DNA of 64,000 nt. Source: Diphasiastrum complanatum. Lineage: Eukaryota; Streptophyta; Lycopodiopsida; Lycopodiales; Lycopodiaceae. The notes beneath the pieces were generated by a model. That model did no database searches. It saw only the letters and a program-made list of their open reading frames with translations, and had not been told where the DNA came from. The DNA lies in assembly GCA_029204225.1 (NCBI GenBank), contig CM055095.1, positions 68,798,980-68,862,979 on the forward strand. Direction: 5' to 3'. Position 1 is the first letter of the stretch, and the number at the start of each line of letters is the position of its first letter. Of this stretch, positions 16,183 through 38,125 are shown piece after piece. The position numbers were made by a program, and so were the translations under genes.

Positions 16183-17339
16183 TGTTGGATCTTTTTCCAT
16201 ACCAATCGACTAATCGGTTTTAATCTTCATCCGTTGTTTATCCAGTTCTGCAGATTTTTTCATGTTTTTATAGTCTGCAGTTTTCAAGTGTTTTTACACA
16301 GTTTGCAAATACACAGAGTTTTACCACAATGTCGCTTTTCTCTCTCACTTCGATTTTTTCACTTTTTGCGAAGTTGTCACCTGTCAGAAAGCTCGTGTAA
16401 AAATGCAGTGTTGCTTTTCGTATTTTTCACCTGTCAGGATTTGCAAGCAAATATGTAGAGTCGCATTTTTCAGTTCATAGAATGTCGCATTCTTTGCTTT
16501 CTCCAAAGTGCCTCAAATGCTAAGGACATGACTCTGGCAAAGTATAGGACAACCCTAAATGAGATTTAAAGACACGGTCGCTTTTTTCGTGTTTTTCGCA
16601 AAATCCCAACACTGTCGCTTGTGGCTGTTTTAGTTCATTTATGCAGAAGTGACAGTATGGTTCATTTATGCAGATAGAACGTTTATGGCCAATTTCACCG
16701 CTTATCAACAATCAATGACAAGGAACAGATGGATGTCAGCCGATCACCAGCCGACTGGCGATCGCAATTGATGACCTGATTTCTTAGTATAAATAGTTGT
16801 TCATATTCATATGGTTTTTGATAATAATTATCAGAACTATCAGAAGAAGAAGAAGCATTTGAATAGTTAGCTCTCTCTCTCAAGCCTATGAGCTTGAACA
16901 CTCCTGAGCATTCTAGCTCACTTCTTAGAGTTGTTTTAGAGATTGCTATTGCGCCACTGCTTATCAGCATTGTGTTTAATTCAGACTTATTCTCAGTTAC
17001 TTAGATATAGCTTAGAGTGCATGGTTTCTATCCGCTATTGTTTTGCGCTCATTAACATCTGATTTTATTTTTCCTAAATCAATACTATCTTCTTATTGCG
17101 ATCAGTATATGTCAGAATGCATGCATCTCTGCATTGCTTTTGTTAACTGAGAGAAATTGTCTGAGAATTCAATACTTCATGTTTGGCTACGTAATCACTT
17201 AGTATCTACGATTTCAAAGTTAGTTGCTAAAGATTGAACGTGATTCCAATCACTACTGCTTTGTTCAATTCTTGATAGGCATAGTCATGCATTGGAAGTA
17301 GGAAGTTTTCGCTTCCATTTATCAATCCTAATTCCAACA
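16183..17339 (+). repeat. 5' LTR of element E (1157 bp)
   Basis: It begins TGTTGGATC and ends ATTCCAACA just before TGGTATCAGAGC. A good TATA box, TATAAATAG, lies at 16788-16796. U3 contains repeated TGTCGCATTTTTC-like words that resemble those in the D LTR. The 38852-39545 piece of the right LTR matches 16480-17165 closely. Confidence 0.92.
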
Positions 17340-17351: not shown

Positions 17352-17481
17352 AATTTCACTATGGGCCTCGAGCGAGCTTGGTCAAGCGAGCTTTTTTAGT
17401 AATACGAGCGAGCTTTTCATAATGACATGATGGGCTCTACAAAATATAGTGTGATTCTCATCTCACTAATGAAGTAGGTTT

Positions 17482-18218
17482 TGTGAAGAATTGAAAAAGA
17501 TTATCTATGTTAGATATAGGGGTTTTATGTTTTTTACATCAAGCATCTAGGTGTAGGATGTTGATAGGAATAAATTTGGCATAGATGGCAAATTATGCAT
17601 GTCCACTTGTAATGCCACTATTGAGCCAAAATAGAGTAAGAGGCTAAACACGTGCCAATTAGAGTGTAGACAAGTGTAATGCTTTTGTTTGATGAATTTC
17701 AAGAGGTCCAATAGGATTTAGAGGTGGAACCTTGTGAGGTCCAATAGGAAATTGAGGTGTGCTTGAATATAGTCCAATAGAATTAAGAGGTGCATGGATC
17801 AATGGTCCAATAGGATCAAGAGGTGACAAAGTATGGTCCAATCATAGTTAAACATAGTGGTAGCTCGTGGATCTACTAGTATCATTGTACTCCTCATTTT
17901 GAAGCTAATTGATTTGGTGATTATATGGATTTTGAGTGTTATTGGATTTCTAGCTTTCTCTCTCTACCCGAGAGCTCATGATGCTTTTTCTCTCTCTACC
18001 CAAGGAGAGCAGCCTGTTTTTACTTAGATTATTTTTTGAATACTTCCCACACGTGTGAGTGAGAGTTGGAAGTGATTGAATGCATGTAGTAGTCTGTTTT
18101 TGCCATAGGATTCAAGATTGATCTTGAATCTCAATCTAGTCTTGATCTTGGTGCATCTACACACCTTAGGAGATCACAAGTACATGTAGTGGACAGTCCA
18201 CACGTGTGAAATTCAACA
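17482..18218 (+). repeat. 5' LTR of copia A+ (737 bp)
   Basis: It starts TGTGAAGAATTG, ends AATTCAACA, and is the same length as the A- LTR. Five TCCAATAG/TCCAATCA boxes stand at about 17705, 17738, 17771, 17814 and 17835. Two CTCTCTCTACCC blocks lie near 17960-18000, and CACACGTGTG palindromes lie at about 18048 and 18200. Confidence 0.95.
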
Positions 18219-18230
18219 TGGTATCAGAGC
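18219..18230 (+). other. Primer-binding site of copia A+
   Basis: TGGTATCAGAGC lies directly after the LTR end AACA. Confidence 0.95.
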
Positions 18231-18974
18231 CTACCTAAGGTTACCATGCATTTTGATCCATCTAAGTGAAAACTTTTCATCAATCTTGAGCTAAAAATTG
18301 TCAAGGCCCATTTTCCTAGCTATCTTGTTCAATTTTGGATCAAAAGAGATCAAAAGGACATTGATTGGGTCTGACAAGGTACTGTACAGAATGAGGTGCT
18401 CAGACATGTGTGAGGAACATCCAAATTCAGTTTGGAAGTTCTCTCTCACGCTTAATCCATTTATCTTGCTTGATAGCTTGTTTTGAAGATATTTTTGTCT
18501 AGTTTCTTATGCAATCAGTTTCATTCCATTTAGTTGAGCCAATCAAAAGCTATAAGCTTTTGAAGAGGGTTAGGAAGGGCACCTAGACCTGGGTGGACAC
18601 ATTTGGTTTGGTCAAGAGATTTCTTGGGTGATCCAAAATCACAGTTGTATGCTTGCCAATCTCATCTATATTTGATCTAGGCACTGTTCTGAGATCTTAG
18701 CCATTTTCTTTCATGCAATATCATTGTATTTGAGTCAAATTTGGTTTCTTAGAGTACTTCACACGTGCTGAGAGTGTTTGATCCTAACTTTGCCTATACT
18801 CCATCATTTTATGTGAAATAGATCTTGTTTTAGAGAGATTTGTGTAGCTAGTGAGAATCAATTCACAAATAGTTGCAAGATCTTTCATAGGAGGAGATAG
18901 TACTCTATTATTGGATCCTATTGAGAGTGTGTAGCAAGATTTATTATTCATTATTTGAGTTTTCTTCACTTCAA

Positions 18975-19790
18975 ATGTCATCAATGGGTTCATCCTTGTT
19001 GGAACCAAGTGAAAGATTGTCCACTTCAAACGATTCAATTTGGAAAATGAGGATGGAGTCCATCTTGATCCTTCAAGACGTGATGGACATAGTTCTTGGC
19101 CTTGAAGAACAACCACAAGTTCTTCAAGAGGTTCAAAAATACAAAAAGAGAGCTAGGATGGCTCTTCACTACATTAAGATGAATGTCTCTAATGAGATAT
19201 TGAGGGAGATAGGTACTTGTACAGTAACCAAAGAAGCTTGGGATTGTCTCAAGACTACCTATGAGGCTAAGAATACCTCTAGGCTTCTCACTCTTAGGAA
19301 TAAAATCTTTCAAAGTAGCCAAAAGAGTGATGAGAGTGCATCTAGTTATGTTTTGAGAGTAAAAGATATTCATAGAGAACTTGCTTGTATTGGTGATTCC
19401 ATCAATCAAAATGAGCTAGTTCAAGTCATTCTCAATGTCTTGAGAAGTGAATTTGATAACCTTGTCCAATCCTATGCCATTAAGGAGGAGCTACCAAGTT
19501 TGGAGGCTCTCCAAAGTGTGCTAATTTCGGAAGAATCAAGACAAGAGTACAAGCTCTCGAGGATGGACAAGCTTTCTCTCACTCATAATGATGGCAAAGC
19601 TCTCTTTGCCAAGGAATAAGCACAAAGGGAGGAGCAAGAACCAACATCAACAATCCTCAAGCAAGGACAAAGTCAAATCCAAAGACAAAGATGAGGAGGA
19701 AGATGATTCCTCTAATGCTTCATCATCCAAGCTCAAGAAGAAGAAGATCAAGTGCTTTTATTGTGGCAAGAAAGGTCATTATGCCACCAG
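18975..19790 (+). pseudogene. Copia A+ gag
   Basis: The ATG at 18975 gives MSSMGSSLLEPSERLSTSND. An upstream TTG in the same frame extends the open frame, but the aligned start in A- and C supports 18975. Gag is open to 19619. One extra A near 19614 creates a TAA there; A- reads KDKHKG across the site. The frame of the knuckle (CFYCGKKGHYAT) then runs to 19788, where a 79-bp deletion relative to A- removes the last cysteine and the linker to protease. The +1 and -79 changes cancel, so protease is again in the gag frame. Confidence 0.92.
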
Positions 19791-21652
19791 GGATCTCTTA
19801 TGGTCTCTAGTTTCTCATCTACTCCTTTCAAGAAGGACGGCCTATGGTATATTGATAGTGGAGCCTCTTCACATATGTGTAGCTCCAAGGACTCTTTCTC
19901 TTCTATTGCACCTTATGATGGAGTCAAGAAATCAATATACACTGCAAATGATTTTGAATGTCCTATTGAAGGCATAGGGAACATTCCCTTGAAGCTTGCA
20001 TCCTCTAAAGTTCTTTCTCTCTCTAAAGTTCTTTATGTACCTAAGCTTACCAAGAATCTTCTTAGTGTTGGCCAATTGCTTGATAATTGCCTTGATGTAA
20101 AATTCAATGTTGAAACTTGCACTATTAAGAAGAATGATGAGATACTTGCATTAGGATCTAGATTTGGAGGCATCTATAAACTAGATCCAAATGAGTATGT
20201 GAATGCTTGTAATGTTGCTCTTGTGAACAAGCTCTCTATGGAGGAATTATGGCATACGAGGTTGGGACATCCCAACTACAAATCCATGCTCTCTATGATC
20301 AAAGAAGCCAAAGCTATTGGCTTGCCAAAGTCAGTCTCCAAGAAGATCAAGCCTTGTGAGGCTTGTGCTATTCCTAAATCTCACAAAAAGCCATTTACAA
20401 GATCTTCTATCAAAAGCAAGCATCCTTTGGAGTTAATCCACTCGGATGTGCATTTCTCATCAACTAGAAGCAAGGGAGGAGCCACTTGTTTTGTTACTTT
20501 CATTGATGATTACACAAGATTCACTTGGATATATCTTCTTGCTTCTAAATCTATGGTGTTTGATCATTTTCTTATTTTCAAAGCTTATGTAGAGAAGCAA
20601 TTCTCATACAAGATTAAAGCTCTTAGAAGTGATGGAAGTGGTGAATATATCTCCAATAAATTTCAAGATTTTTGTGAGCTTGAAGTCATTAAAAGAGAGT
20701 TCTCTTGTGCCTACTCTCCATCTCAAAATGAAGTGGCCGAGAGAAAGAATAGATCTCTATGTGAATGTGCAAAATCTATGAGAATTGAGGCATCTTTGCC
20801 CAAAGATTTTTGGGGAGAAGCCATTAATTGTGCAAATTATCTTTGCAATAGGCTCCCACATATAGCTCTTGGAGGAAAGTCACCATATGAAATCTTATGT
20901 TTGAAGAAGCCTAAGGTTGATCACCTTAGAGTTTTTGGATGCTTATGCTTTGTCCATATTCCCTTGGAAACAAGGAAGAAGGAAGATCCTAGTGCATGCA
21001 AAGGGATCATGGTTGGATACTCATCCACCAAGAATGCCTATAGAGTCTTTATACTCTCTACTTCTCAAGTTATTGAAAGTAGAGATGTTGTCTTTCATGA
21101 AGATCAACACTCATCTTTTGAAGAGGCCGAGATCAAGAAATCTATGGATGCATCATCAATTATTGATTTTGAAGACAATCATGATGTGATGGGGTCGAGA
21201 TTTGAAGAAGACTCTCCTCGGATTTTCTCACCAAGAAGATCCATGAGAGATAGATCCGAGCCTAAGAGGCTCTCATATGTTGACAAAGGCAAACAAGTGG
21301 ATCTTGATTCCACTAATTATGTTTTTTATGTCCCTCATGAAGAGCCAAAGAATGTACAAGAGGCACTCAATACCAAGGAGTGGTATGATGCCATGAAGCA
21401 AGAGTATGCTGCATTGATCACCAACAATACTTGGGAGCTTGTGGATCCTCCATCCAACAAGCATGTGATTGGTTGCAAGTGGGTATTTCGGATCAAGTTC
21501 AATCATGATGGCACCATCAACAAGCATAAAGCAAGATTATGTGCCAAAGGATTTGCTCAAATCCATGTTCTTGATTATGATGACAATAAGAATTCTTATT
21601 TCTCTTGCTTGTTTTTTCAAGTGGAAGGTGTTCCAATTAGATGTTTCAAATG
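19791..21652 (+). pseudogene. Copia A+ protease, integrase and partial RT
   Basis: A long open frame carries protease (YIDSGASSHM), the integrase zinc region (WHTRLGHPNY, CEAC), integrase core motifs (IHSDVHF, LRSDGSGEY, NEVAERKNRS) and the RT start (GCKWVFRIKFNHDGTINKHK). Relative to A-, two glycines near the integrase active site have changed (GGGEY to GSGEY, NGVAE to NEVAE). A short deletion near 21580 removes the segment around TFAPVAK and shifts the frame. The element ends at 21652, before the YVDD motif. Confidence 0.92.
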
Positions 21653-24489
21653 CTCAATGTAAAACATGACTCATTGATCCACCTGACCATATTCTCTTGT
21701 GGATCATATGAGGCATGGCTCTTACCCGCATCAACATTCTCTTGCTCATACTCATCAGGTGAAGATGGCTCTCCATGACTGCGAGATTCTGATGATAAAA
21801 CATGATCGAATTTATCACTTGCTGTAAAAAAAATTGCAACAAACAAAATGATCATAGTTTAAGAACATTATGAATGAAAAATAATTGTAAATATATGCAT
21901 GTGAAAGAAATTGCTATTTACTCACAAGAACTAGAGGTATAGGTCTTCGTTGTAGTGAAGTATCAGGGCCTCTTGGTACGATCTCGTAAAGTCCTTGTCT
22001 ATATTCACAAGTAGCACCAGATAAAAAAGATTAGGAAAAAATTGACACAAACAAGAAGAAGTTCTGATCCATACACAATTTACTAAAAATATCATACTTG
22101 TGCCTCTGTTGCCTTCTTTAACAACTTGCTTTCATGTAAAAAATCTTCTTTCTCGTCTGATGGATACTCTCCTGTGGGAAAATCCAACCACCATGGACAA
22201 TGCTTGAAAACCCATGTGCTCCATTTGCTATTTTTCATTGAGGATGTGTACATGCAATCATTATTTGTTGAATCACACCACTCCAAGGCCATGGGAGACA
22301 TGTACTCTAAGTTTTTGGTATTTACTTGAACGCCCAACCATCTACATCGATTTATGTAAAAACATGAAATGCAATTAATAGAGATGAAATTAATATCAAC
22401 TTGCAAGAAAAAAATATTAATATGCAATACCTCGCCTGAACACAACTCTTTGTGTTGCCAAAGCCAACCCTGGTTGCTTATTAGAATCACATGATGATCT
22501 GGCTTTTCCAACCATCTCTAAGAATACTTTTGGAAAGTTCTTTCTCTTGTACTCTCGAGTGTGCAAAGAAAATCCTGTGGCTGGTAATCTCATGTCATAG
22601 CTAGCCTCCATATTTCGGAGTATAACAATACCAGCATCAATAATCTGATCCCACAAGACCTCTTTCACAAGATATACTCGAAAGGTCTTGTTATCTGCAA
22701 TCGCCAAAACATTCATGGAAGTGTAGAATGAAGACAATGAGTGCAATTGCATATATTAAACGACAATCTGTTACAACTTACCAGTTGGTATGTGGAGTTG
22801 TTTTCTAAAAGCATCATCTTCTTTAGTTAGTGCACGTGCAATGTTTGCCTTGCGATCTTGGGACAACTTTGTGCAAGCTATATTGTATAATCTCTCCTTT
22901 GTAACAGATTTTGGCTTGTGATCCCAATCGACACGTAACATATCACTAAACAAAAATAACATTCTTATTTTTTATAATACTCGTCAATAAACTTGACAAA
23001 CATTTTGATGAAAATAATTAAATGAAATATAATGTATTGACAAAACCGCTTACTTATAAAACTCATCACCGTTGGCTGGATTTGCAAGTGTGGCCAACTT
23101 TCGTGTTTGATGTCTACATTTCAAATCCACTGCATGAAATGTTGTAGCCCACTCCACCTCGTAATTAACTAGCGGAATCTAGGTTTTCTTTTCAAGAACA
23201 GGTTGTAGCTCCAAATGATATACCCCCAATGTCCTTTTTGCCTGACGTAGCCATGCATGGAAATTTCAATGCATAGTTGTTTGTAACGATCACCCAACTG
23301 TCTAATTGTGGAATTGGGAATCAGTCGGCATAAAGGAATTGTGGGAGGAGCTATACCCCTTGACACCTTTGTGGGAAAAGACAAATATAAGTGTTTATGG
23401 CTTAGAAAAATACAAATGCAATCTTTATGCCTAGGCAAGGTAATGTACGAGATTGTAGGTGCAATATTTTACTTGTAATCGATCCATAACGACCTGAAGT
23501 AAATCCAACTGAAGTTTTTTGTCGTAGGAAACAAAGTGACCAGGTTCTTCATCTTCATCTTGTTCATCATCATCTTCTTCAAGAATGACATATGAACTCT
23601 GCTATTAGTGAGAGAATAATAATAGTCAGCTGCGTATACTTCTAGGAAACAAATGCAATCAACATTATTTGATAGTCTTTGAGTCAACCTGGCTTTCTAC
23701 ATTCTTTTGTTTTGAAGCTCCTTTTGGGGTCCTCCTCCTTTTCACAGAACTACCTCGACCTTCCTCCACTGTCATTGCGCTCTACAAAACAAAAATAAAA
23801 CCAAGAAAATAAATAGAAAAAAAAAATTCATGTATTCACAAAATAGTAGTTAAAAATGCTTTGTAGAACACATACATGGCTTGGGATTATGTCATGATGT
23901 TCTTGAACTAAACTCTCCAACTGATTTTCTTGTGTGGTTGGATCTGTTGGATTTGAGGCCAACGAGATTTCTTGCTATGTACAAAAACACACCACATTTA
24001 ACATTAAAAAAATAAACCAATTGCAATATTAGCACCTTCACCTAAAAAAAGTAATGACATGGAACATAAAAAAATTAATACATAATAGATAACTTACCAG
24101 CCTATCAATGGGCCAAGCAACACAACTCTTAACTGAATCGCGAAGAGTGTACATGTCTGCATTCTTGATCAGAATAGGTAGTTGCACGACATCATCATGA
24201 CATGCATACACCAGGATTGACACGTGATTTTTTGGCAATGGCCTATTGTGAAGCATCTCACCAGACTTTGCTTGAAATACCTCACCCTCATCGACTACTT
24301 TATTCTCAGTGAGCAGGCTAACATGATCTCCCTTTTGAAATCCCTACAGAAAATAGCAAGTTTAATATGAGATAATGAAGTGCAAAATCACAATTGAATA
24401 GTGAGTGCAAAGATTTTTGTATCTATGTTGTGTACCTTAGAAAGCTTGCATCTGGTCCTCTTGTCATTGTTTCCTTTTGATCCTTTCAT
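21653..24489 (-). CDS. Spliced gene of unknown function, about 12 exons
   Basis: Exons with GT-AG borders can be traced on the minus strand: 24489-24436 (ATG, MKGSKGNNDKRT), 24343-24098, 23974-23876, 23781-23689, 23598-23473, 23366-about 23224, about 23170-23054, 22945-22782, 22694-22431, 22341-22098, 21998-21926 and 21821-21653. The first five exons are each a multiple of three and stay open. A 5'-UTR intron acceptor sits at 24500. Exon 2 ends with LRDSVKSCVAWPIDRL, like the C-terminus of domains linked to plant En/Spm-type transposon proteins (weak resemblance). Exon 4 is basic and exon 5 acidic (EEDDDEQDEDEEPG). Phase problems at exons 6/7, 9/10 and 11/12 suggest lesions or mis-set borders. 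The 3' end abuts truncated A+. Confidence 0.6.
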
Positions 24490-26900
24490 GATTTAACTCC
24501 TGTGCAAACAAAATCAACAAAAAAATTTAAACTGGTAATGTGTAGAATTGATGTGACAAAGCACTTCTAGACTCAAATATTTTGACCACATTTTAAGGTC
24601 TTGAAATGGAAATCAGTTTCTTCAAATTCTATACACTCTCTCTCCCCCACTCGGAAGAGATTTTCTCTCCCTCCCTCTCTCAAAAGACTTTTTCTTGGAA
24701 CTCCTCGAGGTATGGAGCTGGACTACATTCATCACCACCTTCTTAGCATCTCCTGGTAGGGCAAATGTATCACCACCATATAATCACCAAGCACAGTATC
24801 TGTCGTCTTGCTCCCTAGATTTAACAAAAAGTCCAGTTAATTGAGTTCTATCTTTCAGCGTGCTCTACACCAAAGCTGTTATTTGAAATTTCAGATCAAG
24901 CATTCATCTGATTATTACAGTTTGCAAGGAAAGGTTGTAAGACTGAATTTTTTAATTATCAGATTTGCAAAATTGTAATTTCAGTTAGATGGAAAAGTTA
25001 AATGGTGTTTATGCAAGCACGGCCCAGATTCCGCAGTAGTTCAATGGAGAGAGCAACCAGAGTAGAAACCAGAGCAACCAAGCAGGCTCTGATCACTCAT
25101 TGCCACCATGACTGGTGAAAAGGTTCTGGTAAGAAGATCCATCGCCAGCAGGTAATCATTACATAATAGCAAACCATGCTTTTTTCTTAATTTCCAATGC
25201 AGACGTAACAAGCCCGAGCTGAAACTACAGCATCGGCTTGGACTTTTAGACGCAAGGAAGATCAAAATACATGCAAAGCGGAACTAGCTAGTGAACCTTG
25301 TAAGCTAGCTGCTGGGACATGAACTAACCGAAGTGTTGCGCAGCTTAGCGACTGGTGATTATTAGTAGCGAGTGGGTTGGGTATTTACGAAACAGAGGGA
25401 TTAGATATCCAGAACAGCATGCAATAATACAATGACATCAATCACCCTCTAAAAGATTATCAGCCAGTTCGATCGAGCACTCTATCGAGTTGGCAAAGGG
25501 CATTTTTTGCAGATTTCCTTATATGGGGGAGGCACTGGTTCAGAACCCGCGTCCTCAATAATGGCTTCGAGAGAGATGGCCTGCAGAAGACAGAAGAGAA
25601 CTAACGAAGATCAAACGACATGCTCCCCTAGAATCAAGGATGACCTGCACCAGAAACAGAGAACGAGTGTCCAAAAAAATGGTACTTTCTGAATCTAAGG
25701 ATTGTAGTTTAGATCATTTGAAGCCACGTGCCTTGCGCTTGAGAGCCACAAATAAAAGTCTGTTACCTACAGACTTTTACCCATGGCTTGGCTTTCCTGA
25801 AATCACACATGCAGGTTGATGACAAGCACATTCCAATTTCCGGATGGAGAATGGAGCCACGCTACCTCACGAATCAGTCACGAGCTACGTTAGATGGATG
25901 GATGGTGTTGCTATGTAGGTTGGCTTCATCGTCAGTTTTATTTGCAAGCTTCCATGGAGTGTGGAGTCTATCTGCACTGTATTTATTCAGTATCTTGTGT
26001 GTTCTGATATCAAAACGCCTGCACATCACTTGTAAATGACCCCTTTCAAGACCTCTTTGCGTGCGTATTTAGAGAAGAAAGCCTCTCGCACCTGCACATC
26101 AACAGCTCGTAAATAATGTCGGCCGTGGCGCCGGCGCCACGACAAAGCCCAAAAAATTACCCATCTCAAAACAGAGCGCCGTGGCGCCGGCGCCACGACA
26201 AAGGCCAACACATGACCCATTTCAAAAGAAAGCGTTGTGGCACCGGCGCCACGGCCGCCCAAAAACAAATTAATCCTACACCAAAAGAAATCGTTTTTGG
26301 TAAATGTGCCGCCCAAAAAAGTTCCTAGCTGGCTATTCGTAAATGCACTGTCCAATTGATGGGAAATTTTGCTCTTAATGGAAACGACCATTCTATACTA
26401 AATATCCCAAATCTACAATAGTCGACCAGAGAATAAAGACATTTTTTGAATCTGTAGTTCAATGTTAGTTCTCTTTGTGCTTCACCTTATTTTTGCAAAG
26501 AGCCTTCGACCCAGTGGCTATCCATTCTCTGTCATTTTGTAAACGTGCGATAGGCACCACAAATTGCGTGGGAAAAAGACTCCTTGCGGAAGGATATTCC
26601 CCCTACTAAATTGCATGCTGCTGAATTCAAGTTGCTGAGTTACGGTCAATACCTTGATTTTGTGATAAATCAAGTGCTTATATAGGATGATCAACAACCG
26701 AAAATAACAAGCAGACCTCTGAGTCCAGACAATTAACGGACTCTATGTATCTTTGGGCTAAGAATGACCTGAGGTAAATTTGCTAATGTTAAGTTGATTA
26801 CTTGTTCAGTTGTATGACAATTATTTACAAAAAAAAAAAACAATTTCATGGAAAAAACGTTAGCAAGAAACTTAGATATCGAGGGGTTGCTTTTAAATAT
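24490..26900. other. Non-coding stretch inside element E
   Basis: No reading frame here is convincing on either strand. A CT-rich plus-strand tract at about 24640-24690 could be part of the 5' region of the minus-strand gene. A 56-bp tandem repeat with a strong palindrome lies at about 26115-26283. The remainder shows nothing I can name. Confidence 0.5.
26115..26283. repeat. 56-bp tandem repeat with a 16-bp GC palindrome, three units
   Basis: GTGGCGCCGGCGCCAC, a perfect palindrome, occurs at 26125-26140 and 26181-26196, and with one change at 26237-26252. The period is exactly 56 bp. The intervening bases (CGACAAAG, CCCATNTCAAAA-like) are also shared. The block is far more GC-rich than its surroundings. 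Confidence 0.93.
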
Positions 26901-26908
26901 TGGGTAAA

Positions 26909-27804
26909 TCAATCCGAATATGGGTTTGCTTTTTGGGATGGATTTAATGGGTAGGGAAAAAATGTAGGGGAATAAAACAACAGCTGTTTACTTCCAACAC
27001 AAATCAGTGAGCCTAGTAGCAACAACGGGCCTGAACCATTTTGCAGGAAGCTAATGTAGGTATCCAAGCGATCAGCTTGTTGCTGGGCCAATGTCTTTTC
27101 GCTTTCAGCCTTTTCTTCATGTTGCTTGGCTATCTTCACCTCTCGATCCAGCTGGACAATTTTCTGGCTGATCAGAGTGTTTTCGGATCCTAAATCAGAG
27201 ATCCTCTGTTCCATTTTCTTCTTCTTATCCAGCATAGACTACATCACTTGCCCAAGGCTTGAAACTAACCCAAGAGCATCACCATAATCGACAGTCGTGG
27301 AGGTGGCAGCAGCAGGAGACCCTGATGGTACTGTCCGTGGTAGGCGTGGAATAGGTGCCAAGGTCTCTTCTTCTTCAAAAATATCCTCGTCTTCAAACCC
27401 TTCAGGCATCGTGGCGTCGAACTGCTTTGGTGACTTTATAGTTGTGTCAACCCGAAGTGTGGCTGGGCTACCATGTGTGGCTAGTTGCTGACTCGCATCT
27501 TCGACACCAACAATAGCTTCATGGATATGCCCGAATCCTCTTCCAGGGATTGGGGTTCAAAGGGCGCTGGGCTCTGGGGCATTTCAAAGATTTCAGTGGC
27601 TCCAAGGGGGTCGGAATCATCGAACATATCTATGAAGAACTGTGTGTTGGGTGAGGTTGCTTCGATGTGCGGGGGTGAGGCGGCCTGGGCAGCTGTGATG
27701 GGAATGGTAGGCCCAATGGTCACAGACTGTCCTTGTATGGGAGCAGAGACGAGGGAAGCATCAAAGGTGAGGGGAATTGATACAATGGTACAATTGTCCT
27801 GCAA
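26909..27804 (-). pseudogene. Gypsy accessory ORF, coiled-coil protein (minus copy)
   Basis: Reading from 27804 gives a frame with QGQSVTIGPTIPITAAQAAS and FIDMFDDSDPLGATEIFEM. After a frame change comes SPKQFDATMPEGFEDEDIFE, then a stop near 27240. The last part, 27235-26909, is a heptad-like charged stretch (KKKKMEQRISDLGSENTLI and following) typical of a coiled coil. The plus-strand region 48560-49300 has the same blocks in the same order, so this is a conserved piece of the gypsy family. It sits directly after RNase H, where integrase would be expected. Function unknown. Confidence 0.65.
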
Positions 27805-29340
27805 TTAATTGATAAGGTTGAGTCTTATGAATCAATTGTCTTTTCTGTACTTTTGTCAAAGAGTCATTCGGTTGTCCTAGCATTAGGTACTCAACAATAT
27901 CTACCGCCCACTCAGGTACTGCTTCAACATAGAACAACGCAACATCTGGCAGTTCATCATCCACTTCAATATTAACTAGTGCGGATTCAACTCGCAAAAC
28001 GTGATCGGCTAGATAATGTTGCTTCCCCTTTCTGGCCACAATTTGAAAGCCAAATTCAGTCAATAATAATAACCATCTTGCAATACGTCCAGTATTACAC
28101 ATCTTATTTACCAAGTAAAGTGACGGTTGATGATCCGTATAAAATACAAAATGTGTTTCCATGACGTAGTGATGAAATTTCCGAACAGAAAAAATCATGG
28201 CTAGCGCTTCACGTTCTGTTGTTGAATAATTCTTCTCTGGATCTGTAAGCTGTCTGCTTGCAAATCGTATAGGATAATCCTTCGTATAGTCATCTGGCTG
28301 CGTCAAAACTGATCCAATGGCGTATTTTGAGGCATCCGTATGAACATGAAACTCTAATGTCCAATCTGGAGAACGCAGTATTGGTGCTAAAGATAATGCT
28401 TTTTTTAACTTTTCAAAAGCCTCTAATGCCTCTACTGTCCAAATAGGAACAATAGTTAATTTGTATATAGGTTTGTTGAATCCGCAAAGAAGATAATAAA
28501 AATTCGATAGTAGTTCGCATGACCCATAAACACATAAACTCCTCAAATTGTTGCTGGCGGTGGCAATTCCACAATAACTTTGATCTTAGAATAATCGGTG
28601 GCAATACCATGTCTTGATATTACATGTCCAAGCACCACTCCGTGAGAAACCCATATCTGGTATTTTTCTGGATTTAGAGAAATCTAATATTTGCGGCATC
28701 TTTCAAAGACTTTCTCCAATCAGTCCAGGTGGTCTCTATCTGTACTATGAACTCCCAAGTTGCCCAAGTAAATTTCAAGAAATTTTTGCAGATAATCTTT
28801 AAAGGCAAATTGTATTACTCTTTGGAATGAACTTGGTGCATTACAGAGTCCAAACGGCATTACTTTGTAAGCATAGATGCCCCATTCTGTTGCAAAAGTA
28901 GTTTTGTGGCGATCGGCAGGTGCAATCTTAACCTGGTTGTAACCACTAAATCCATCCAGGAAATTATAAGCTTTCGCTCCAGCAAGGCGATCCAAAATGC
29001 TTTCAGTAAAAGGTAATGGAAAGTGATCCTTCCATGTCACTTTATTTAATGCTTTGAGATTCACACAAATTCACAATTTTCCATTTTTCTTAGGAATAAT
29101 GACAATCGGTGAAATTCATTCAGTATGCTTGATCTTATAAATGAAATCGGTGTCAAGCAGTCTATGAAGTTCTTTCTTTATCAGATCTTCCACATGAGGT
29201 TTACATCGATAGAACTTTGTAACCTTTGGTATTGCATCAGGTACTAAAGGTATGGTATGCTCAATGACTGATGTCGGAATATCCTTCAAATTTTGATAAG
29301 TCTATGCAAAGCAATCTTGATACTTATTAAGTAACAAACG
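27775..29340 (-). pseudogene. Ty3/gypsy reverse transcriptase and RNase H (minus copy)
   Basis: RT shows PIVIIPKKNGKL, VNLKALNKVTWKDHFPLPF, NFLDGFSGYNQVKIA, FATEWGIYAYKVMPFGLCNA and SSFQRVI. The active site, normally YxDD, reads EIYLGNLGVHS, so both aspartates of that motif are gone. RNase H follows with HTDASKYAIGSVL, TEREALAMIF and VFYTDHQPSLY, so its acidic residues are kept. Several stops (for example near 29296, 29119 and 29071) and one frame change near 28500 are present. The reading ends in VQKRQLIHKTQPYQLIAGQL, the usual lead-in to integrase, but no integrase follows. Confidence 0.92.
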
Positions 29341-29349
29341 GAGTGCTTG

Positions 29350-29820
29350 ATACTGTTCAAGAGTAAGTTGTGATCCCACATGTACAATCTTTTCCGGTTC
29401 TCCTGGCAAGATTCATTGGTTGCGTCCTAGCTGGGCCATCGTAAACCTCTTTAGATTTCGGCATGTGTTCTTCATGTTCACGATGTGCTTTAGGTAACAT
29501 GATAACCACATCATCCAGTGTATAACGTTTAAAATGCTCTGGCATATCATGCTGGACTACATTTGCTTGTTCTTTTTCGAAAGGACTTGTCTTGGATCTT
29601 CGTTTAGTCTTCTTAGCAGGAATTGATCGTGGAGGTGATGACTTTCGGGATGATAAATCTTTCTTCACAGGTGAAGACTTCCTAGACGATGATGTCTTGC
29701 TGGAGATCTGACTTGAAGAATCATTCTTGACTTTTCCTTTGCCTTTATCCATTAGAGGTGGCACTTCCTTTAAATCAATCTTTTGAGGTTGTTGAGCAGT
29801 AGCATAAATGGCATACTATT
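29350..29820 (-). pseudogene. Gypsy gag tail and pre-RT linker (minus copy)
   Basis: A low-complexity Ser/Lys/Arg-rich frame (SSSRKSSPVKK, RKSSPPRS) is followed by HFKRYTLDDVVIMLPKAHRE. Upstream, across two stops, YAIYATAQQ continues the gag reading and matches YAIYAAAQQ in the plus copy (about 11905). The second knuckle and protease found in the plus copy (11990-12960) are missing between the two parts, so this copy carries a deletion there. Confidence 0.65.
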
Positions 29821-29827
29821 CGGAAGA

Positions 29828-30991
29828 TTATCCTTCCTGATCATTACCATAGCTCCATTGCTCAGCACTTCCGTAAGGTTTTGGTTCCATCAGATTGGTA
29901 GGAGGAGCGGAGTGTTTTGGTGGGGCAGGCAACGCTAGACGTTCCGGGTATCCAAGGGTAGATTGTCGCAGTCTTGCTGCTGGATTGCCTCCATACTGTG
30001 GATCTCGATATCCCATCTGGGCATACCATTGCTGAATTATCCGAGGGTTGAAGTTGCAAAAGGCAGTCTCATGGTTAGGTGAATTACACAGATGGCAAAC
30101 AGTGATTTTCATATGTTTTTTCAATTGAGGACACTCGTTCACTATGTGATTTCCTGTACAAATAGAACACCGGACATTTTTCCTAATAGGAAAAGTCTTT
30201 GCAAACTTCTCAGGTTCCTTGTTCGCTTCTCCGTGAAAATTTTCCAATGCTTTGATCTTCTCATCAAATTGCAACTGCAACTTTTCCATCTATTTCTGCT
30301 GGGTCTTTCCAAGTTTCTCAAACTCACTGAGCATCATTTCTGCAGTAGCATTGGCATTCGTTGATGCAATACTGGTGGATGTCGTAGTAGTCTGCCCTAC
30401 TGTATAAGGTAACACACTAACATTCGGCTCATCATCTGAATCTTCATCCTCCTCCCGAATTGCATCGTCCATCACATTTTGCAAAAGTGCATACTCATTA
30501 TGGCGTTTCAGCTCACGTCTGATCTGTTTAGGTAGACTTGACAAAAACCACATAATCATGGCATTTTCATTAATCAGCTCAGGCTCACATTTAGATCTAA
30601 GACGTGTCACCCTTTTGATGTCATCTCGAACCATTTCCCGCTTTCCCATTTTAATTTTACTTAAAAGTAGAAAAGGGTCTTCCATAAACTTCTGCGGTTT
30701 GAACCGTGTGATAAGGGCTCGTTTAACAACCTCCCAATCTGTACGCTCAGTTTCATCTTGGTTATAGTACCAATCTTGTGTTGCGCCTATTAAGGCCATA
30801 GGAAACAACTTAAGTTTATCTTGAGGATAAATCTCACCATAGACCTCACAGGATTCAGCATAGATATGAAGAAATCTAACTGGATCTGTTAATCCATTAT
30901 ATTTGGGTAGATCCAATCGGGGTGCTCTTCTAACAATAATTGGATTGACCTCCTGTGGAGCACCTCCAGGAGCAGCTCCAGGGGCAGCCAT
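29828..30991 (-). pseudogene. Ty3/gypsy gag with one in-frame amber codon
   Basis: The ATG at 30991 starts MAAPGAAPGGAPQEVNP. The body contains LPKYNGLTDPVRFLHIYAES and LFPMALIGATQDWYYN, and later ALITRFKPQKF and WFLSSLPKQIRRELKRH, the classical gypsy Gag (retrotrans_gag) layout. One TAG at 30290-30292 splits it; the frame then continues unchanged through EKLQLQFDEKIKALENFHGE to two adjacent zinc knuckles, CSICTGNHIVNEC (CX2CX3HX4C) and CHLCNSPNHETAFC (CX2CX4HX4C). Further stops follow after 29828. This is the only place in the window with the N-terminal Gag domain of this family. Confidence 0.9.
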
Positions 30992-31577
30992 CCTTACAGA
31001 TTTAGATCAAATCGATAATGAGATTGGGTATAGATTTTTCCGAAAAACTATTTCAGATTAGATCTGCTATCTCTATTCCACTTTTCAAGAATCTAATTCT
31101 ATATGATGACAAACTACCCAAAATTTGATCAAACAATACTTCTCAAAAATGGTAAATCTCTCAGATTCCAATTCAGAATATATCAGATTTGATCCAATTT
31201 TGACAAAGACTTGATCTGGAAAATCAGAAACTAAAAATAGGACTAGCGAAGGTTCTCTAGGCGAAGGTTGTCTCGGCGAAGGTTCAACAGTGTTATTTTG
31301 GGATAAAAACTCTTTGAACACTTTTCTGGCAATTTCTTGGGAAATAACCTTCGCCAACTTCTCAAATGGAAGATCTAACACAGATAAAACTATGGACAAC
31401 CGGACGAAGATTTTTGACACAACCAAATACTGTTTTTGTAATCTGGCGAGGGTAAAAATCAAGATTTTTTGTGATCTGATTAAATAGAATTTTTGCCGAA
31501 CTCAAAAATAGTAGTTTACTATAGATAGAATGTTCTGGAAACTCGGCAAAAATTCTGGCAAAGGATCAAGAGTAATA
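30992..31577 (-). repeat. Probable gypsy leader/LTR remnant (minus copy)
   Basis: There is no convincing ORF. GCGAAGGTT repeats at about 31246-31290 and AAATAACCTTCGCC at about 31345 match words in the LTR-like region at 13250-13590. The stretch lies directly upstream of the gag ATG, so leader or LTR identity is inferred. I did not find clear TG/CA ends or a primer-binding site. Confidence 0.45.
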
Positions 31578-32063
31578 CTAATAATTTTGCAAAAATGTGA
31601 CTTTTTTGGCAAAAATATGACAATATAAGAGTTCTGATAGTTGTTGGTGACTCATTTCAAATTTAGCACATTGTTCATCTCTAGTTACAGCCTTGAGTAA
31701 AAGTTCTTTTGAAACTTCCATTTGTATTTTTCCAGGACCAGGGTTACTGTTGGTAGCCACCACTTCATCTACTAATCTTTTTGTTTTTGCGAGTGCGAAG
31801 CGAGATGAACCTGCTCTTATAACATGATTGTGAAAACCTTGATGTATCATGACCCTGCTGCATTGAAAGTTGCTAGGCATGCAATAATATACATTTACTG
31901 CACATGCTTGTATGCAAATTGGTTTTCTCTTGCAATAAAAACACTCCAATGTCCCATACCCGTCAGTGGACACGCCCAATGGTGGTCTACTTTTCAGCTC
32001 GCCAATCCAACATTGTCGATTTGGTGCACCAGACAATCCGAGTGATCCACAAAGTCCATTCAT
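31578..32063 (-). pseudogene. MULE-like transposase, N-terminal half (inverted)
   Basis: On the minus strand a 161-codon open frame contains LECFYCKRKPICIQACAV, a Cys-rich block, then RVMIHQGFHNHVIRAGSSRF and ATNSNPGPGKIQMEVSKELL. It reads like the region before the catalytic core in a plant family of MULE-type transposases. I recall similar proteins from non-seed plants, but cannot check this. The catalytic half lies next to it on the opposite strand (32340-33031). The frame starts at an ATG (32063), but this need not be the true start. Confidence 0.55.
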
Positions 32064-32339
32064 ACCTCAAAAACACCACCACAGTAACTTTTTCTTATAG
32101 TGCTTGGAAAACTAACATGTGTCTTCACATGGATAAACTCAAATACTCTATTTCGGTAACATCGGTTTGTGTATATCATAAAATTTTAGAGATAGCTATT
32201 AAAATGATTTGTTTGAACTTATCATTGTATTCATTTATGCAGATTCAAGAAAATAGTGACTGAGAGCAAAAAAAGAACTATGGGAAAGGGTGTGGAGACT
32301 AGTTTACTGAAATTAAAAAGATTGTGTATATATGATTTT

Positions 32340-33031
32340 TTCCATGGAAGTAGATTTCCAGGACAGTGTGAAGATATTACAGAACGTTGCTTTGTGTTCA
32401 AAATGTCCACAACGGGACCAGCATCTGGTGTTGATCTAGTGAATAGGATGGCACAAACTGGAGATGGTGACTTGAGAAGGTCATGGGTTTGCTTTGACCA
32501 TGTTAGGCAAGTACAGGGTTGGACGACTATGGGAGCACACGTTTATGTACCTAGGTATTGAATCTTGTTTTTTCTCAACAATCACACAACCATTTTTTCA
32601 AGAACATTTTGTAAAACATTAATGTTAGAATCATTGCATATCCACAATATTTTGTTTGACAGTGTGTTTTTATGAAACAATGTGCAAGAACTCATGACAA
32701 TTGCCACTTGCGAGATGAAAGAGGAGGACATGGAAGCACAAGCTTTATTTTGGAATATGTTAAATAAGACCATAAGAAAAAAGGGCTTCAAAGAGCCAGA
32801 CTTTCATGGCTTCATGGCAGATGAAGCACAAGCAAACTGGAGAGCCATTCGTACGGTGTACAATGGAGGACCGGAGAACATAATGCACGGTCGAGAACGA
32901 TCATGTCTTTTTCACTGGGAGCAAAGTCTTCAAATACACACAACCCAATACGTATTCAAGCGACATCAAGATGAACACAAAGACATTTGTCGCAAGTGGA
33001 AGAATGCATTGACGTTAGATGAAGCTTTACC
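32340..33031 (+). pseudogene. MULE-like transposase, catalytic half
   Basis: Two open blocks can be read. Block 1, about 32340-32554, contains PGQCEDITERCFVFKMSTTG and WVCFDHVRQVQGWTTMGAHV, and ends at a possible GT donor (32555). Block 2, about 32689-33031, contains ATCEMKEEDMEAQALFWNML, DFHGFMADEAQANWRAIRTV and RERSCLFHWEQSL. The pattern MADEAxANWxAI followed by CLFHW resembles the second Asp and the C/W-H region of MULE-type DDE transposases. The phase across the presumed intron does not fit perfectly. At about 33032 the frame runs into a fragment of the element E LTR, so the C-terminus is missing. Confidence 0.65.
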
Positions 33032-33062
33032 AGAGCCGCATTTTTCACTTGACAGAATGTCG
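33032..33062 (+). repeat. Element E right LTR, piece 1
   Basis: GCCGCATTTTTCACTTGAC and the following AGAATGTCG align with 16458-16486 of the left LTR. The copia C insertion at 33063 separates it from piece 2 (38852 onward). The E LTR starts about 275 bp earlier, so its left end is missing here. Confidence 0.75.
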
Positions 33063-33792
33063 TGTGAAGTTTTTAGCACCTGTGAACTTCACCACACACC
33101 CTAAAGGATCTTACTGAGGTGTTGTGATTGCACAAGATTGATCAAAGAACAGTATGCTTGAAAAATCTAAGGCAAGAGCACAATGGCATACATCTGATGA
33201 AAAAATCCAACTCTTCACTATGAGAAATGAATGTCAAAAATAATTTTAAGTGTTCAGTATGGGAAAAAGAGGCTGCTCTCTGGTAGAGAGAGAAAATCAT
33301 ACATAGAAAACTTGGGTAGAGAGAGAATGAGTCCAAAACACCAAAATCTCAATATTCACAATATGGCAAAACATGCCGAGCTTTCCCTACATGAGAGAGA
33401 CTCAAATTCCTACAGTGGAGTTGCATGGAAAGTCCACTTAACTGAACTAATTCACCTACCAGAGATCCACATGTGTAACTGCATGCATGTATGGTGCATG
33501 TACTATATGTCAACTCATAAAATTGCCTAGACATGTGTAGATCATAGAAACTACTTTGCATGTTGCATGCACTGATTGCATGTGGCTTGCATGCATACAG
33601 TAAGACTTTGCATGCTATCTACACATCTGCATGTCATTATAATTGAACCTATATAACTCAAATCCGAGCTACACTAGAAGGATATGTGCTCAATTCACAC
33701 TCCTTATATGTACAACATGAAATCTAGTGGAAATCATCATGGACATGACCCCAAACTCGAGATAGGAAGATAATATTTTAATAATCTTCACA
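33063..33792 (-). repeat. 3' LTR of copia C
   Basis: 730 bp, matching the 726-bp partner at 38126-38851 closely. The ends are TGTGAAG and CTTCACA. The G-box core present in the partner (CACGTG at about 38140) reads CACCTG here. Confidence 0.95.
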
Positions 33793-33806
33793 ATCCTTCT
33801 TAAAAT

Positions 33807-34536
33807 TTATGTTCCTATCAACATAGATTTTGAAATTAGGCCAAGGTTAGACCTTATCTTCATAAAGACATTCTTGAGTAGAGGCTTGGTGAGAAGATCT
33901 GCAACACAATCTGAAGATGAAACATGCTCCAATGAGATCTCTCTTCCAATGACTTTTTCTCTTACAAAATGATGAGCCACTTCAATATGCTTGCTCCTTG
34001 CATGAAAGACTAGATTATTTGCAAGAGGCTGAGCAGAAATGTTATCATTCTTGATAACTGGTAAATCTTCATCTGCATAACTCTTAAGCTCCCTTTTGAT
34101 CCATAAAATCTCCTTTGTTGTGGTTGTAAGAGATTTGTATTCAGCTTCACAAATGATAAGGAAATAGTTGTCTGCTTCTTTGACAGCCAAGAAACGAAAT
34201 TTTCTCCAAGAAATATAGTGTAAGCACTTGTGGATTTCCTATCCAACCTGTCTCCTGCAAATCTGAATCTGAAAAAGCAATCAAAGTCAGATCTTCTCCT
34301 TCATAGTATAGTCCATAATCCAAGGTAGAAGATATATACCTCAAGACTCTTTTAGCCAACTTCCAATGATATAACTTTGGATCTTGCATGTGTTGACTTA
34401 GCTTATGAACACAAAAGCTTAGATCAAGCCTAGTCACTGTTAACCAAATAAGTGAGCCAATAAGACTCCTATAAAGAGTGATGTCCTCAAAGTATTTTTC
34501 ATCATCTTTAATAGGAACTTTTACAGTGTGCTCCAC
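33807..34536 (-). pseudogene. Copia C RNase H
   Basis: Pieces in changing frames include YRSLIGSLIWLTVTRLDLSF, RVLRYISSTLDYGLYYEGED, GWIGNPQVL and CEAEYKSLTTTTKEILWIKR. They also include KNDNISAQPLANN and FHARSKHIEVAHHF. The catalytic Asp in the CDN motif is kept, but its Cys has become Asn. There are at least two frameshifts (near 34150-34250). A purine-rich stretch reading GAAGGATTG precedes the LTR end at 33793. Confidence 0.85.
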
Positions 34537-34559
34537 AGACTTTTGAACAAAAGAAAAAC

Positions 34560-35690
34560 TTTTGATTCATCACCTTCCTTCACAAAACCTGGAGGCTGCT
34601 CCATATAAGTCTCCTCCTCAAGGTAACCATTGAGAAAATGCATTAAAAACATCAAACTGGAACATGCTCCATTTGTGAAAACATGCAAGAGAGATGAGTA
34701 TTCGAATTGTTACCATCTTTGCAACTGGTGCAAAGGTATCTTCATAATCGAAACCTTTAATCTGTGAGTAGCCTTTAGCACAAAGTCTTGCTTTATACTT
34801 ATTGATAGATCTGTCATGATTATACTTGATTCTGAATACCCACTTACATCCAATCACATGCATGTTGTTTGGTGGCTCCACAAGCTCCCATGTGTTATTT
34901 GACATCAAGGCTTCAATTCTTGGGTCATTGCTTCAACCCACTCCTTGGATTGAAAAGCTTCTTGGACGTCCTTAGGCTCTTCATCTGATATAAAAAGTGC
35001 ATGATAGGAAGTTTCACCTTCCACTTGGCTTCCTTCTTCATCATATGTGAGAATCCTTGGCCCAGATCTTCTTGGTGTGGTAGCTTGAATCTGCTCCTCC
35101 TCAAGCCTCGGCCTCACCTCTTCTTCAATAGCATCAAGGTTGATGATTGATCTTGCATGAGTCTCTTTGATTTTTGCATCATCCAAGTTAAATTTCTGAT
35201 CTTCATGGAAGACCACATCTCTACTAACAACATTTTTGTCAGTAGAGGGCAAATAAAGCTTGTATGCTTTTTTAATAGATGCATAACCTACAAAAATTTC
35301 TTTTACTGCACTAGGATCTTCCTTCTTCCTAGTTTCTAGAGGCACATGCACAAAGCATACACAACCAAAAATCCTAAGATGATCTACCTTAGGCTTTTTC
35401 TTATACAACATCTCAAATGGTGTCTTTCCTCCTATTGCAAGATTTGGAAGCCTATTACAAAGATAGTTTGCACATGCAACTACCTCTCCCCAAAATTCTT
35501 TAAGCAGAGAAGCTTCCAACCTAATGGATTTTGCACATTCACACAAAGCTCTATTCTTTCTCTCAGCAACTCCATTTTGCTGAGGAGTATTTGAATGCCC
35601 TCTCTCTCACAGAAGTCTTTAAACTTATTGGAAGTGTATTCTCCTCCACTATCACTTCTCAAAGCTTTTAGTTGAAAGAAAACTGCTTTT
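34560..35690 (-). pseudogene. Copia C reverse transcriptase and integrase C-terminal part
   Basis: Integrase is represented by MRSDSGGEYTSNKFKDF and a broken NGVAERKN region. RT follows with GCKWVFRIKYNHDRSINKYK, KGYSQIKGFDYEDTFAPVAK and MEQPPGFVKEG, up to VFLLFKS at about 34545. The reading then jumps to a stretch equivalent to the end of RT (KVPIKDDEKYFEDITLYRSL), so about 130 codons including the YVDD active site are deleted. RT of this copy is therefore inactive. Confidence 0.88.
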
Positions 35691-36440
35691 CTACATAAGC
35701 TTTGAAAGTAAGAAAAACATCATAGACCATGGCTTTTGAAGACAGCATATAGATCCAAGAATGTCTTGTATAATCATCTACAAAAGAGACAAAGCAGTTG
35801 GCTCCTCCTTTGCTCTTAGTTGATGAAAAATGAACATCTGAGTGTGCAAGTTCAAATGGTTGCTTTTTCTTGATACTTGATCTAGGAAAAGGTCTTCTGT
35901 GTGACTTTGCCAGCACACAAGCATCACAAGGTAGAAGCTCCTTTGACAGTGTCTTTGGTAGACCAATAGCTTTTTCTTCTTTGACCATAGATTGCATGCC
36001 TTTGAAATTGGGATGACCCAATCTCTTGTGCCACAGATCCTCCTGTAGAACCTTGGTCTCATAAGCAATATCTGAAATGTTAGCACTCTCCCTAGAATCT
36101 AGTTTGTACAACTTACCAATTCTAGATCCTCTAGCAATAACTTCATTTTCTCTTGAGATTATACACTTGTCAACTTGAACATCCAATCCACTATCAAACA
36201 GCTGTCCTACACTAATGAGATTCTTCGTCAATCTAGGTACATACAGTACATCATATAAGCAAAAAGATTTTGATGATGATGCATGTAATGGAATGATACC
36301 TATTCCTTCAATCCTACACTCTACATCATTGGCAGTATAGATTGACCTTTTTGCACCTAGATATGGCATGAGATTAGTGAAAGAGTTCCTAGAACTAGAC
36401 ATGTGGGAACTAGCCCCACTATATATCTACCAGACTTTTT
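35668..36440 (-). pseudogene. Copia C protease and integrase N-terminal part
   Basis: The open frame runs through SRNSFTNLMPYLGAKRSIYT, VLYVPRLTKNLISVGQLFDS, the zinc region WHKRLGHPNFKG/CDACVLAKSH and HSDVHFSSTKSKGGANCFVS. The protease active site at about 36415-36430 reads YSGASSHM: the catalytic Asp codon is now Tyr, and a TAG stands two codons upstream where Tyr is expected. Protease is therefore dead. The integrase zinc ligands and first Asp are intact. Confidence 0.88.
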
Positions 36441-37375: not shown

Positions 37376-38113
37376 CTTCTTGGTGAGAAATTCTAGTAAT
37401 GATAAAAAATGGAGTTGAAAGGATGTTGCTTGCTATCTCAATCTAGGATCTAACATAGATGTTGATCCACCCTATGAAATCTAGCAACAGATGTGAGAAC
37501 AAATTTTCAATACAAAAAATCAATCTATCTTGAATTTGGATCTTGCTTCAGTCACAAAAGAAGAAGCACATGCAAGCAAAAAGTCTATCTCTCTCACGAG
37601 TTTCAATGTACTGATAAACTCTCTAGGATCTAACTTTCAACTCAAACACAGTAATATGTGTGAAATGAAAAGTCTAAGACCTCAAAACACTCACTTCTAT
37701 CCAATTCTACTTGATTGACAATGAAAATTGATGAAAATGGTGAGAAAGACAGATGTGTGCTTTGTTTGGCATATCCCAAGAGTTGAGTACCCTCTCTTCT
37801 AAAAACAAATGAAATTGATTCAAAAACAAGAGCAACACATTCTACTCTTTAATACCTATCCAACAAGCTATAAAACATCAAATTTGGATCATTCCTTGAG
37901 AAGTAGCACTCATTAATGAAGGCTGATTTCACACGTGTGAGCTCTCTGTCCGTACAGAGCTCCGCTGGATCAGATCAGCCCTGATTTGATCCACTTATGA
38001 TCCATAGATTGCTTGTTTCTCATCGAGTTTGAATCCTTCTCCAAAATCCGAGTTCCTACAAGCAAAAACACTAATGATCTGATGTATACACCCTCACCTC
38101 TTCAAAGCATGAA
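37376..38113 (-). other. Untranslated leader of copia C
   Basis: About 740 bp lie between PBS and gag, similar in length to the leader of A but different in sequence. It contains a CACACGTGTGAG word at about 37931. I see no ORF I would defend. Confidence 0.7.
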
Positions 38114-38125
38114 GCTCTGATACTA
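38114..38125 (-). other. Primer-binding site of copia C (mutated)
   Basis: The minus strand reads TAGTATCAGAGC, one change from TGGTATCAGAGC, directly after the LTR end. Confidence 0.85.

What the first reader, a model, noticed from the sequence alone, without database searches (positions are those of the whole stretch)
21653..24489. Spliced gene of unknown function preserved inside a retrotransposon nest
On the minus strand about 12 exon-like blocks with canonical GT-AG borders can be followed. The first five are in phase and open, and a 5'-UTR intron acceptor precedes the ATG. Such structure decays fast without selection. It may be a gene carried between the LTRs of E, a domesticated transposon gene, or a DNA transposon ORF. 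The exon 2 C-terminus (VAWPIDRL) hints at En/Spm-linked domains.
Basis: partly seen in the sequence, partly recalled or inferred. Interest (0 to 1): 0.7.

Follow-up and report, generated by a model that had tools for sequence, protein, structure and literature searches.

The report
Broken transposon gene for DNA methylation
The stretch is a damaged copy of a many-exon gene that is repeated at dozens of places in this probably plant genome; better preserved copies end in part of a bacterial-style DNA-methylating domain, like accessory genes known from algal transposons.

Summary
In detail: about 12 GT-AG exons on the minus strand, 24489-21655; a splice-aware scan scores 123.5 against at most 61.9 in 120 simulations. 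This copy is dead: a TGA in exon 11, a deletion at 23228/23223 (7 of 7 comparable copies carry 734-843 bp there), and exon 12 cut at 21655 by a truncated Copia. It is no lone gene: the window's own genome gave 65 matching pieces. dN/dS is 0.18-0.44 in 27 between-subfamily pairs and 0.29-1.19 in 26 within-subfamily pairs: the source gene was selected, single copies decayed. Copies running past the cut carry an exon hitting Pfam N6_N4_Mtase (PF01555, E 1.3e-9). An exon lost here has a ParB-like WDGNHRL motif (by eye only). In 2 of 11 copies a transposase-like exon lies upstream on the opposite strand. This resembles the ParB-plus-methyltransferase gene of Ectocarpus Sola1 and algal transposons (PMC12477816, passages). 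Carriage between LTRs of 'E' and En/Spm membership are not supported. I read it as a new member of a known, little-studied kind, probably in a land plant.

The parts
24436..24489 (-). exon 1, ATG at 24489; in-frame TAA and a 5'-UTR acceptor (ending 24500) just upstream
24098..24343 (-). exon 2; resembles recalled TNP1-like sequences, no profile hit
23876..23974 (-). exon 3
23689..23781 (-). exon 4, basic stretch KRRRTPKGASKQK
23473..23598 (-). exon 5, acidic stretch
23228..23366 (-). exon 6, 5' part only; its 3' part with the ParB-like WDGNHRL motif is missing from this copy
23223..23228 (-). deletion junction: 7 of 7 copies with both flanks carry 734-843 bp here
23054..23166 (-). exon 7 (NYEVEWATTFHAVDLKC...); its start is uncertain, a frame change just before it is shared by several copies
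22782..22945 (-). exon 8
22431..22694 (-). exon 9; single-sequence AlphaFold2 model of two helices, pLDDT 69.5
22098..22341 (-). exon 10; strong acceptor (start 22341) breaks the frame, weak one (start 22324) keeps it
21926..21998 (-). exon 11 with an in-frame TGA
21655..21821 (-). exon 12, cut by the Copia; in other copies it continues and is followed by the exon with PF01555
24490..27035 (-). upstream part shared in pieces with other copies of the family (homology starts at 27035)
32258..32555 (+). transposase-like exon, opposite strand to the gene (by eye; no profile hit)
32658..33032 (+). transposase-like exon (MADEAQANW...CLFHW); 96% identical DNA lies upstream of the gene, same relative orientation, in copy C22a
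17480..21654 (+). Copia copy whose truncated 3' end cuts off the gene's C-terminal part

Best explanation
The interval is a decayed, internally deleted and 3'-truncated copy of a many-exon accessory gene of a repeated DNA-transposon-like family. The complete protein has N-terminal basic and acidic regions, a ParB/sulfiredoxin-like region and a C-terminal bacterial-type (permuted) N6-adenine/N4-cytosine DNA methyltransferase domain. Most likely the ParB-like part helped it bind element DNA and the methyltransferase part marked that DNA, aiding transposition or escape from silencing. Shown: exon structure, copy number, past purifying selection on the part present in the window, the profile hit of the AdoMet-binding half, decay of this copy. 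Inferred: the catalytic half, the ParB-like identity, membership with the neighbouring transposase-like exons in one element, and the methylation role (suggested in print for the algal relatives, not tested).
For: Spliced structure far above chance. 65 matching pieces of 22000-24000 in the own genome, at about 37 places by my count, the window included. dN/dS over window exons, HSP-covered codons only: 27 of 28 between-subfamily pairs 0.18-0.44 with dS 0.24-0.44; 20 of 21 pairs within the first subfamily 0.29-1.19; 6 of 6 within the second 0.59-1.13; two pairs with 24 codons were skipped. A first run with forced alignments gave 0.28-0.45 for 24 between-subfamily pairs without copy C7a and 0.31-1.04 for four with it. 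The longer exon 6 gives 0.15-0.32 in 15 between-subfamily pairs. Exons 12+13 of C13a hit PF01555 N6_N4_Mtase at 1.3e-9, 38.8 bits against a cutoff of 26.7; exon 13 alone gives 4.9e-8 in C13a and 6.5e-9 in C9; weak hits among solved structures are CcrM, MboIIA and DpnA (E 0.02-0.77). Exon 13 sequence is found in 6 of 10 fetched copies. WDGNHRL is present in 6 of 8 copies that keep the exon, with one change in each of the other two. A transposase-like exon lies upstream on the opposite strand in the window and in C22a. [quoted passage not shown]
Against: The PF01555 hit rests on exon 13, the AdoMet-binding half; the exon 12 part alone hits nothing relevant (protein 3, protein 6). The usual catalytic motif [DSN]PP[YFW] is not seen; the nearest stretch reads MDINIPLW, so activity is uncertain. 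For the methyltransferase part dN/dS between subfamilies is 0.40-0.62 (0.81 with 70 codons of C7a) and within subfamilies 0.34-0.78, so that part shows no contrast. No profile or structure search recognises the ParB-like region. The transposase-like exon is linked in only 2 of 11 copies and no element termini were found. The genome-wide search for the transposase did not complete. Some of the 37 places may be duplicated contigs. No transcript data.
Confidence: 0.7

Rival explanations
1. A dispersed host gene family: a plant N6/N4 methyltransferase gene, once acquired from bacteria, that spread as duplicated and captured pieces and decayed, not a transposon's own gene.
For: Purifying selection between subfamilies fits a host gene as well; no termini or target duplications found; the transposase-like exon lies beside only 2 of 11 copies. 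A bacterial-type N6_N4 methyltransferase working as a host gene exists in bdelloid rotifers (PMC8885841, passages).
Against: 65 matching pieces spread over many contigs, stops in the compared exons of all 10 fetched copies, upstream and downstream non-coding sequence shared among copies, and the close parallel to an algal transposon gene.
Confidence: 0.19
2. A CACTA (En/Spm) TNPA/TNP1-type accessory gene.
For: Many short exons, about as many as the 11 of maize tnpA (PMC2613891, passages); exon 2 scores 71 and 56 against two recalled TNP1-like sequences, shuffles at most 46; CACTATAAGAAAA at 32102, one mismatch to the recalled Spm terminus.
Against: No CACTA family profile in six frames of 21650-26600, three frames of the minus strand of 24500-33000 or of the plus strand of 26500-33062; exon 2 itself hits no such profile. 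A methyltransferase domain is not part of TNPA as I know it.
Confidence: 0.05
3. An antisense extra gene carried by an LTR retrotransposon ('E'), as in Grande or Retand.
For: Direct repeats of about 700 bp flank the region; antisense extra genes are known in plant LTR elements (PMC7264820 and PMC11963269, passages).
Against: The repeats do not form a demonstrable element; copies elsewhere share the gene with its own flanks; no TRP28 (PF04195) hit.
Confidence: 0.03
4. A chance exon chain.
For: Splice sites can be picked by eye in AT-rich DNA.
Confidence: 0.01

Closest known systems
ParB-like plus N4C/N6A methyltransferase accessory gene of Sola1-1_Ec32 (Ectocarpus) and the green and red algal transposon proteins cited with it (PMC12477816, passages read; its refs 50 and 51 seen only as citations)
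   Same: C-terminal N6/N4 DNA methyltransferase domain; ParB-like region before it (here by motif only); gene on the strand opposite a transposase-like exon in 2 of 11 copies; repeated element
   Different: Genome looks like a plant (name not given); many short introns; transposase not assigned to Sola1; this copy is broken
Bdelloid rotifer N4CMT (PMC8885841, passages read)
   Same: Permuted PF01555 methyltransferase of bacterial type in a eukaryote, with introns
   Different: Host gene with chromodomain and SPPY motif; ours is repeated, without SPPY and with a ParB-like region
VANC proteins of VANDAL elements (starts of abstracts in the listing; one passage of PMC13317346)
   Same: Accessory gene of a DNA transposon acting on the element's methylation state
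   Different: No methyltransferase domain known to me; no matching profile in our gene
TNPA/TNP1 of En/Spm, Tam1 and soybean Tgmt (PMC2613891, passages read)
   Same: Many-exon accessory gene of a plant DNA transposon
   Different: No CACTA profile hit here; ours ends in a methyltransferase domain

Membership tests
ParB-methyltransferase transposon accessory genes | N6/N4 DNA methyltransferase domain | tested here: met
   PF01555 above its cutoff in copies C13a and C9, on the AdoMet-binding half; the window copy is cut before it and the catalytic half alone gives no hit
ParB-methyltransferase transposon accessory genes | ParB-like domain | tested here: inconclusive
   WDGNHRL motif in 6 of 8 copies, strong constraint, but no profile or PDB hit
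ParB-methyltransferase transposon accessory genes | gene lies opposite a transposase in one element | tested here: inconclusive
   2 of 11 copies; genome-wide search unanswered
Sola1 superfamily | Sola1 transposase and 4-bp target duplication (recalled) | not tested
   no Sola model at hand; termini not found
CACTA (En/Spm) | tnp2 or TNP1/Ptta domains | tested here: not met
   no such hit (exon 2)
CACTA (En/Spm) | CACTA terminal inverted repeats with 3-bp duplication (recalled) | tested here: inconclusive
   one single-mismatch site at 32102, no partner
LTR-retrotransposon antisense extra ORF | gene between two LTRs of one element | tested here: inconclusive
   the 'E' repeats were not shown to delimit one element; copies elsewhere share the gene's own flanks; LTRs around those copies were not searched
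Functional gene | open reading frame without disablement in this copy | tested here: not met
   TGA in exon 11, deletion at 23228/23223, truncation at 21655

The most novel reading that the evidence does not exclude
A land-plant DNA transposon family encodes its own ParB-guided N6A/N4C methyltransferase, kept by selection across subfamilies, so that the element writes a bacterial-type mark on its own DNA in a genome ruled by 5-methylcytosine.
Probability: 0.33. Interest if true: 0.75.

Novelty: new member of a known kind. Interest (0 to 1): 0.5.

Why it matters
If right, a bacterial-type DNA methyltransferase with a DNA-binding partner domain has been carried and kept by a mobile element in what looks like a plant. 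This extends a class reported from brown, green and red algae. It gives a concrete place to test whether such elements put N6-methyladenine or N4-methylcytosine on their own copies, and whether that helps them escape silencing. The window copy itself is a dead relic of ordinary kind.

Tried and rejected
Rejected: chance chain; CACTA membership. Carriage between LTRs of E found no support. The one relative found in the prokaryote genome collection (L001) is a chance peptide match inside a bacterial protein. Five scans of viral contigs found no relative. A single-sequence fold of exon 2 was useless (pLDDT 36.9); exon 9 gave two helices at 69.5, not searched further. DUF8039, which I first recalled, was in no paper of the library; the recalled sequences hit PF03017 instead. 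C22b, C22a and C17 seemed to share a left end, but C22a and C17 match further left. Phage methyltransferases match weakly (175 records at E up to 1, best 3e-3).

Rows set apart: pairs with copy C7a (10 of 55) gave 0.31-1.13 on poorly aligned exons, and some exon ends at breakpoints (C13b exon 6, C22a exon 12) were forced; one search repeats the count on HSP-covered codons with all copies, and two pairs with 24 codons were skipped.

Full report
Setting. It is a nest of Copia and Gypsy elements; several carry the primer-binding site TGGTATCAGAGC, which I recall as usual in plants. I take the host for a plant, probably a seed-free one; that is inference, no call names it.

Observation. On the minus strand a chain of exons runs from an ATG at 24489 to 21655. 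E1-E5 are open and in phase 0; a T-rich acceptor and an in-frame TAA lie just before the ATG. Exons have 41% GC, introns 27% GC and 45% T. A dynamic-programming scan for open exons joined by GT-AG introns gave 117.5 against at most 93.4 in 180 Markov sequences. A stricter version gave 123.5 against at most 61.9 in 120 Markov sequences and at most 55.7 in 73 window tiles without training ORFs. The codon model came from retrotransposon ORFs of the window; the splice matrices were recalled.

Damage in this copy. Exon 11 has an in-frame TGA. Exon 10 keeps its frame only with a weak acceptor (start 22324); the strong acceptor (start 22341) breaks it. Between E6 and E7 the window has lost sequence: 7 of 7 copies with both flanks carry 734-843 bp between the bases matching 23228 and 23223 (C20 734, C17 818, C13a, C7b and C7c 827, C22a 839, C9 843). 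Just before NYEVEW a frame change is shared by several copies (C9, C22a, C17, C7b, C7c, C13b) while C13a and C20 read through, so the true start of exon 7 is open. Exon 12 is open up to 21655, where a Copia with a truncated 3' end begins. That Copia differs from the window's other copy by 83 of 3572 substitutions and three indels, so the cut is fairly recent in transposon time.

Copies elsewhere. Bases 22000-24000 gave 65 matching pieces in the own genome, a lower bound by the tool's own statement and about 37 places by my count, the window included. Some pairs of places have equal scores and may be duplicated contigs. I fetched 20-kb stretches around ten of them and 6 kb more for one. Six are 88-96% and four 86-87% identical to the window in exons. 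They share non-coding sequence upstream to 27035 and beyond, and downstream past the Copia cut. A further match about 180 kb away is 100% identical: a local duplication or an assembly artefact.

Selection. In one search I counted Nei-Gojobori changes on the window's frames, using only codons covered by BLAST segments. Of 28 between-subfamily pairs 27 had at least 50 codons and gave dN/dS 0.18-0.44 (dS 0.24-0.44). Of 21 pairs within the window's subfamily 20 gave 0.29-1.19, the two lowest being pairs with C7a; 6 of 6 pairs within the other subfamily gave 0.59-1.13. Each of the ten fetched copies has at least one in-frame stop. An earlier run with forced alignments gave 0.28-0.45 for 24 between-subfamily pairs without C7a, 0.31-1.04 for four with it, and 0.53-1.28 within subfamilies without C7a. 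The pattern is that of a source gene under selection with single copies decaying. For the longer exon 6, 15 between-subfamily pairs give 0.15-0.32; within-subfamily values run from 0.23 to 2.27 on few changes. For the methyltransferase part the values between subfamilies are 0.40-0.62 (0.81 with C7a, 70 codons) and within subfamilies 0.34-0.78, so there is no such contrast there.

Identity. The window copy alone hits no Pfam family that reaches its cutoff. Copy C13a continues past the cut: exon 12 goes on and a further exon reads GAQRGKNLINYIVQLFSDPGDVIVDLTVGMGTLLHEATSLGKSVIGLENQIDLYK. Joined, they hit PF01555 N6_N4_Mtase at 1.3e-9 (38.8 bits, cutoff 26.7); the further exon alone hits at 4.9e-8, and at 6.5e-9 in copy C9. 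The exon 12 part alone gives no such hit in either copy. A search of solved structures lists CcrM, MboIIA and DpnA weakly. The further exon is seen in 6 of 10 fetched copies, inverted and partial in two. The AdoMet-binding part comes last, as in the permuted type described for bdelloid N4CMT (PMC8885841, passages). No [DSN]PP[YFW] motif was seen; MDINIPLW stands near the expected place. Upstream, the exon that the window copy has lost carries WDGNHRL in 6 of 8 copies. With the preceding residues I read it as ParB/sulfiredoxin-like, from memory of those motifs; profile and structure searches did not support it. Exon 2 resembles two recalled TNP1-like sequences but hits no TNP1 profile.

Neighbour. 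At 32258-33032 on the plus strand lie exons that read like a DDE transposase (MADEAQANW...CLFHW; by eye, no Pfam or PDB support). The second exon, 92.6% identical in protein, lies in copy C22a upstream of the gene and on the opposite strand. That is 2 of 11 copies; it was not found in the stretches of the other nine. Repeated genome-wide searches for it did not complete.

Comparison. The Ectocarpus transposon survey describes, in the 21.5-kb Sola1-1_Ec32 family, a gene on the strand opposite the transposase with a ParB-like domain and an N4C/N6A methyltransferase domain. [quoted passage not shown] Our gene fits in domain content and, in two copies, arrangement. I did not test whether the transposase is Sola1. 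My paper searches showed no land-plant case among the rows listed (10, 12 and 15 rows); that is not proof of absence, and the library lacks most subscription papers.

Verdict. The finding is a dead copy of a transposon-like gene family. The family encodes a bacterial-type DNA methyltransferase domain, probably with a ParB-like partner domain. The class is known from algae; this appears to be a plant member with many introns.

Noticed in passing
window 31580-32063 (-): An open stretch of about 160 codons with a zinc-finger-like pattern (CFYCKRKPICIQACA...HQGFHNHV), head-to-head with the transposase-like exons; no Pfam support.
   Followed up: partly
window 32090-32102 (-): CACTATAAGAAAA, one mismatch to the recalled Spm terminus, between the two divergent coding stretches.
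   Followed up: partly
window 33063-38851: Copia with direct repeats at both ends, flanked by the 5-bp duplication TGTCG, inserted into a repeat also present at 16457-17163.
   Followed up: yes
window 26122-26253: GC-rich 56-bp tandem repeat, 2.4 copies, containing the perfect palindrome CGTGGCGCCGGCGCCACG, upstream of the gene.
   Followed up: no
window 1707-2305 and 7202-7801: Copia1's LTR pair stops about 137 bp short of the primer-binding site at 7064, so its 3' LTR looks truncated at 1707.
   Followed up: partly
G000:C4:68638452-68640452: A 100% identical inverted match to window 22000-24000, about 180 kb away: local duplication or assembly artefact.
   Followed up: no
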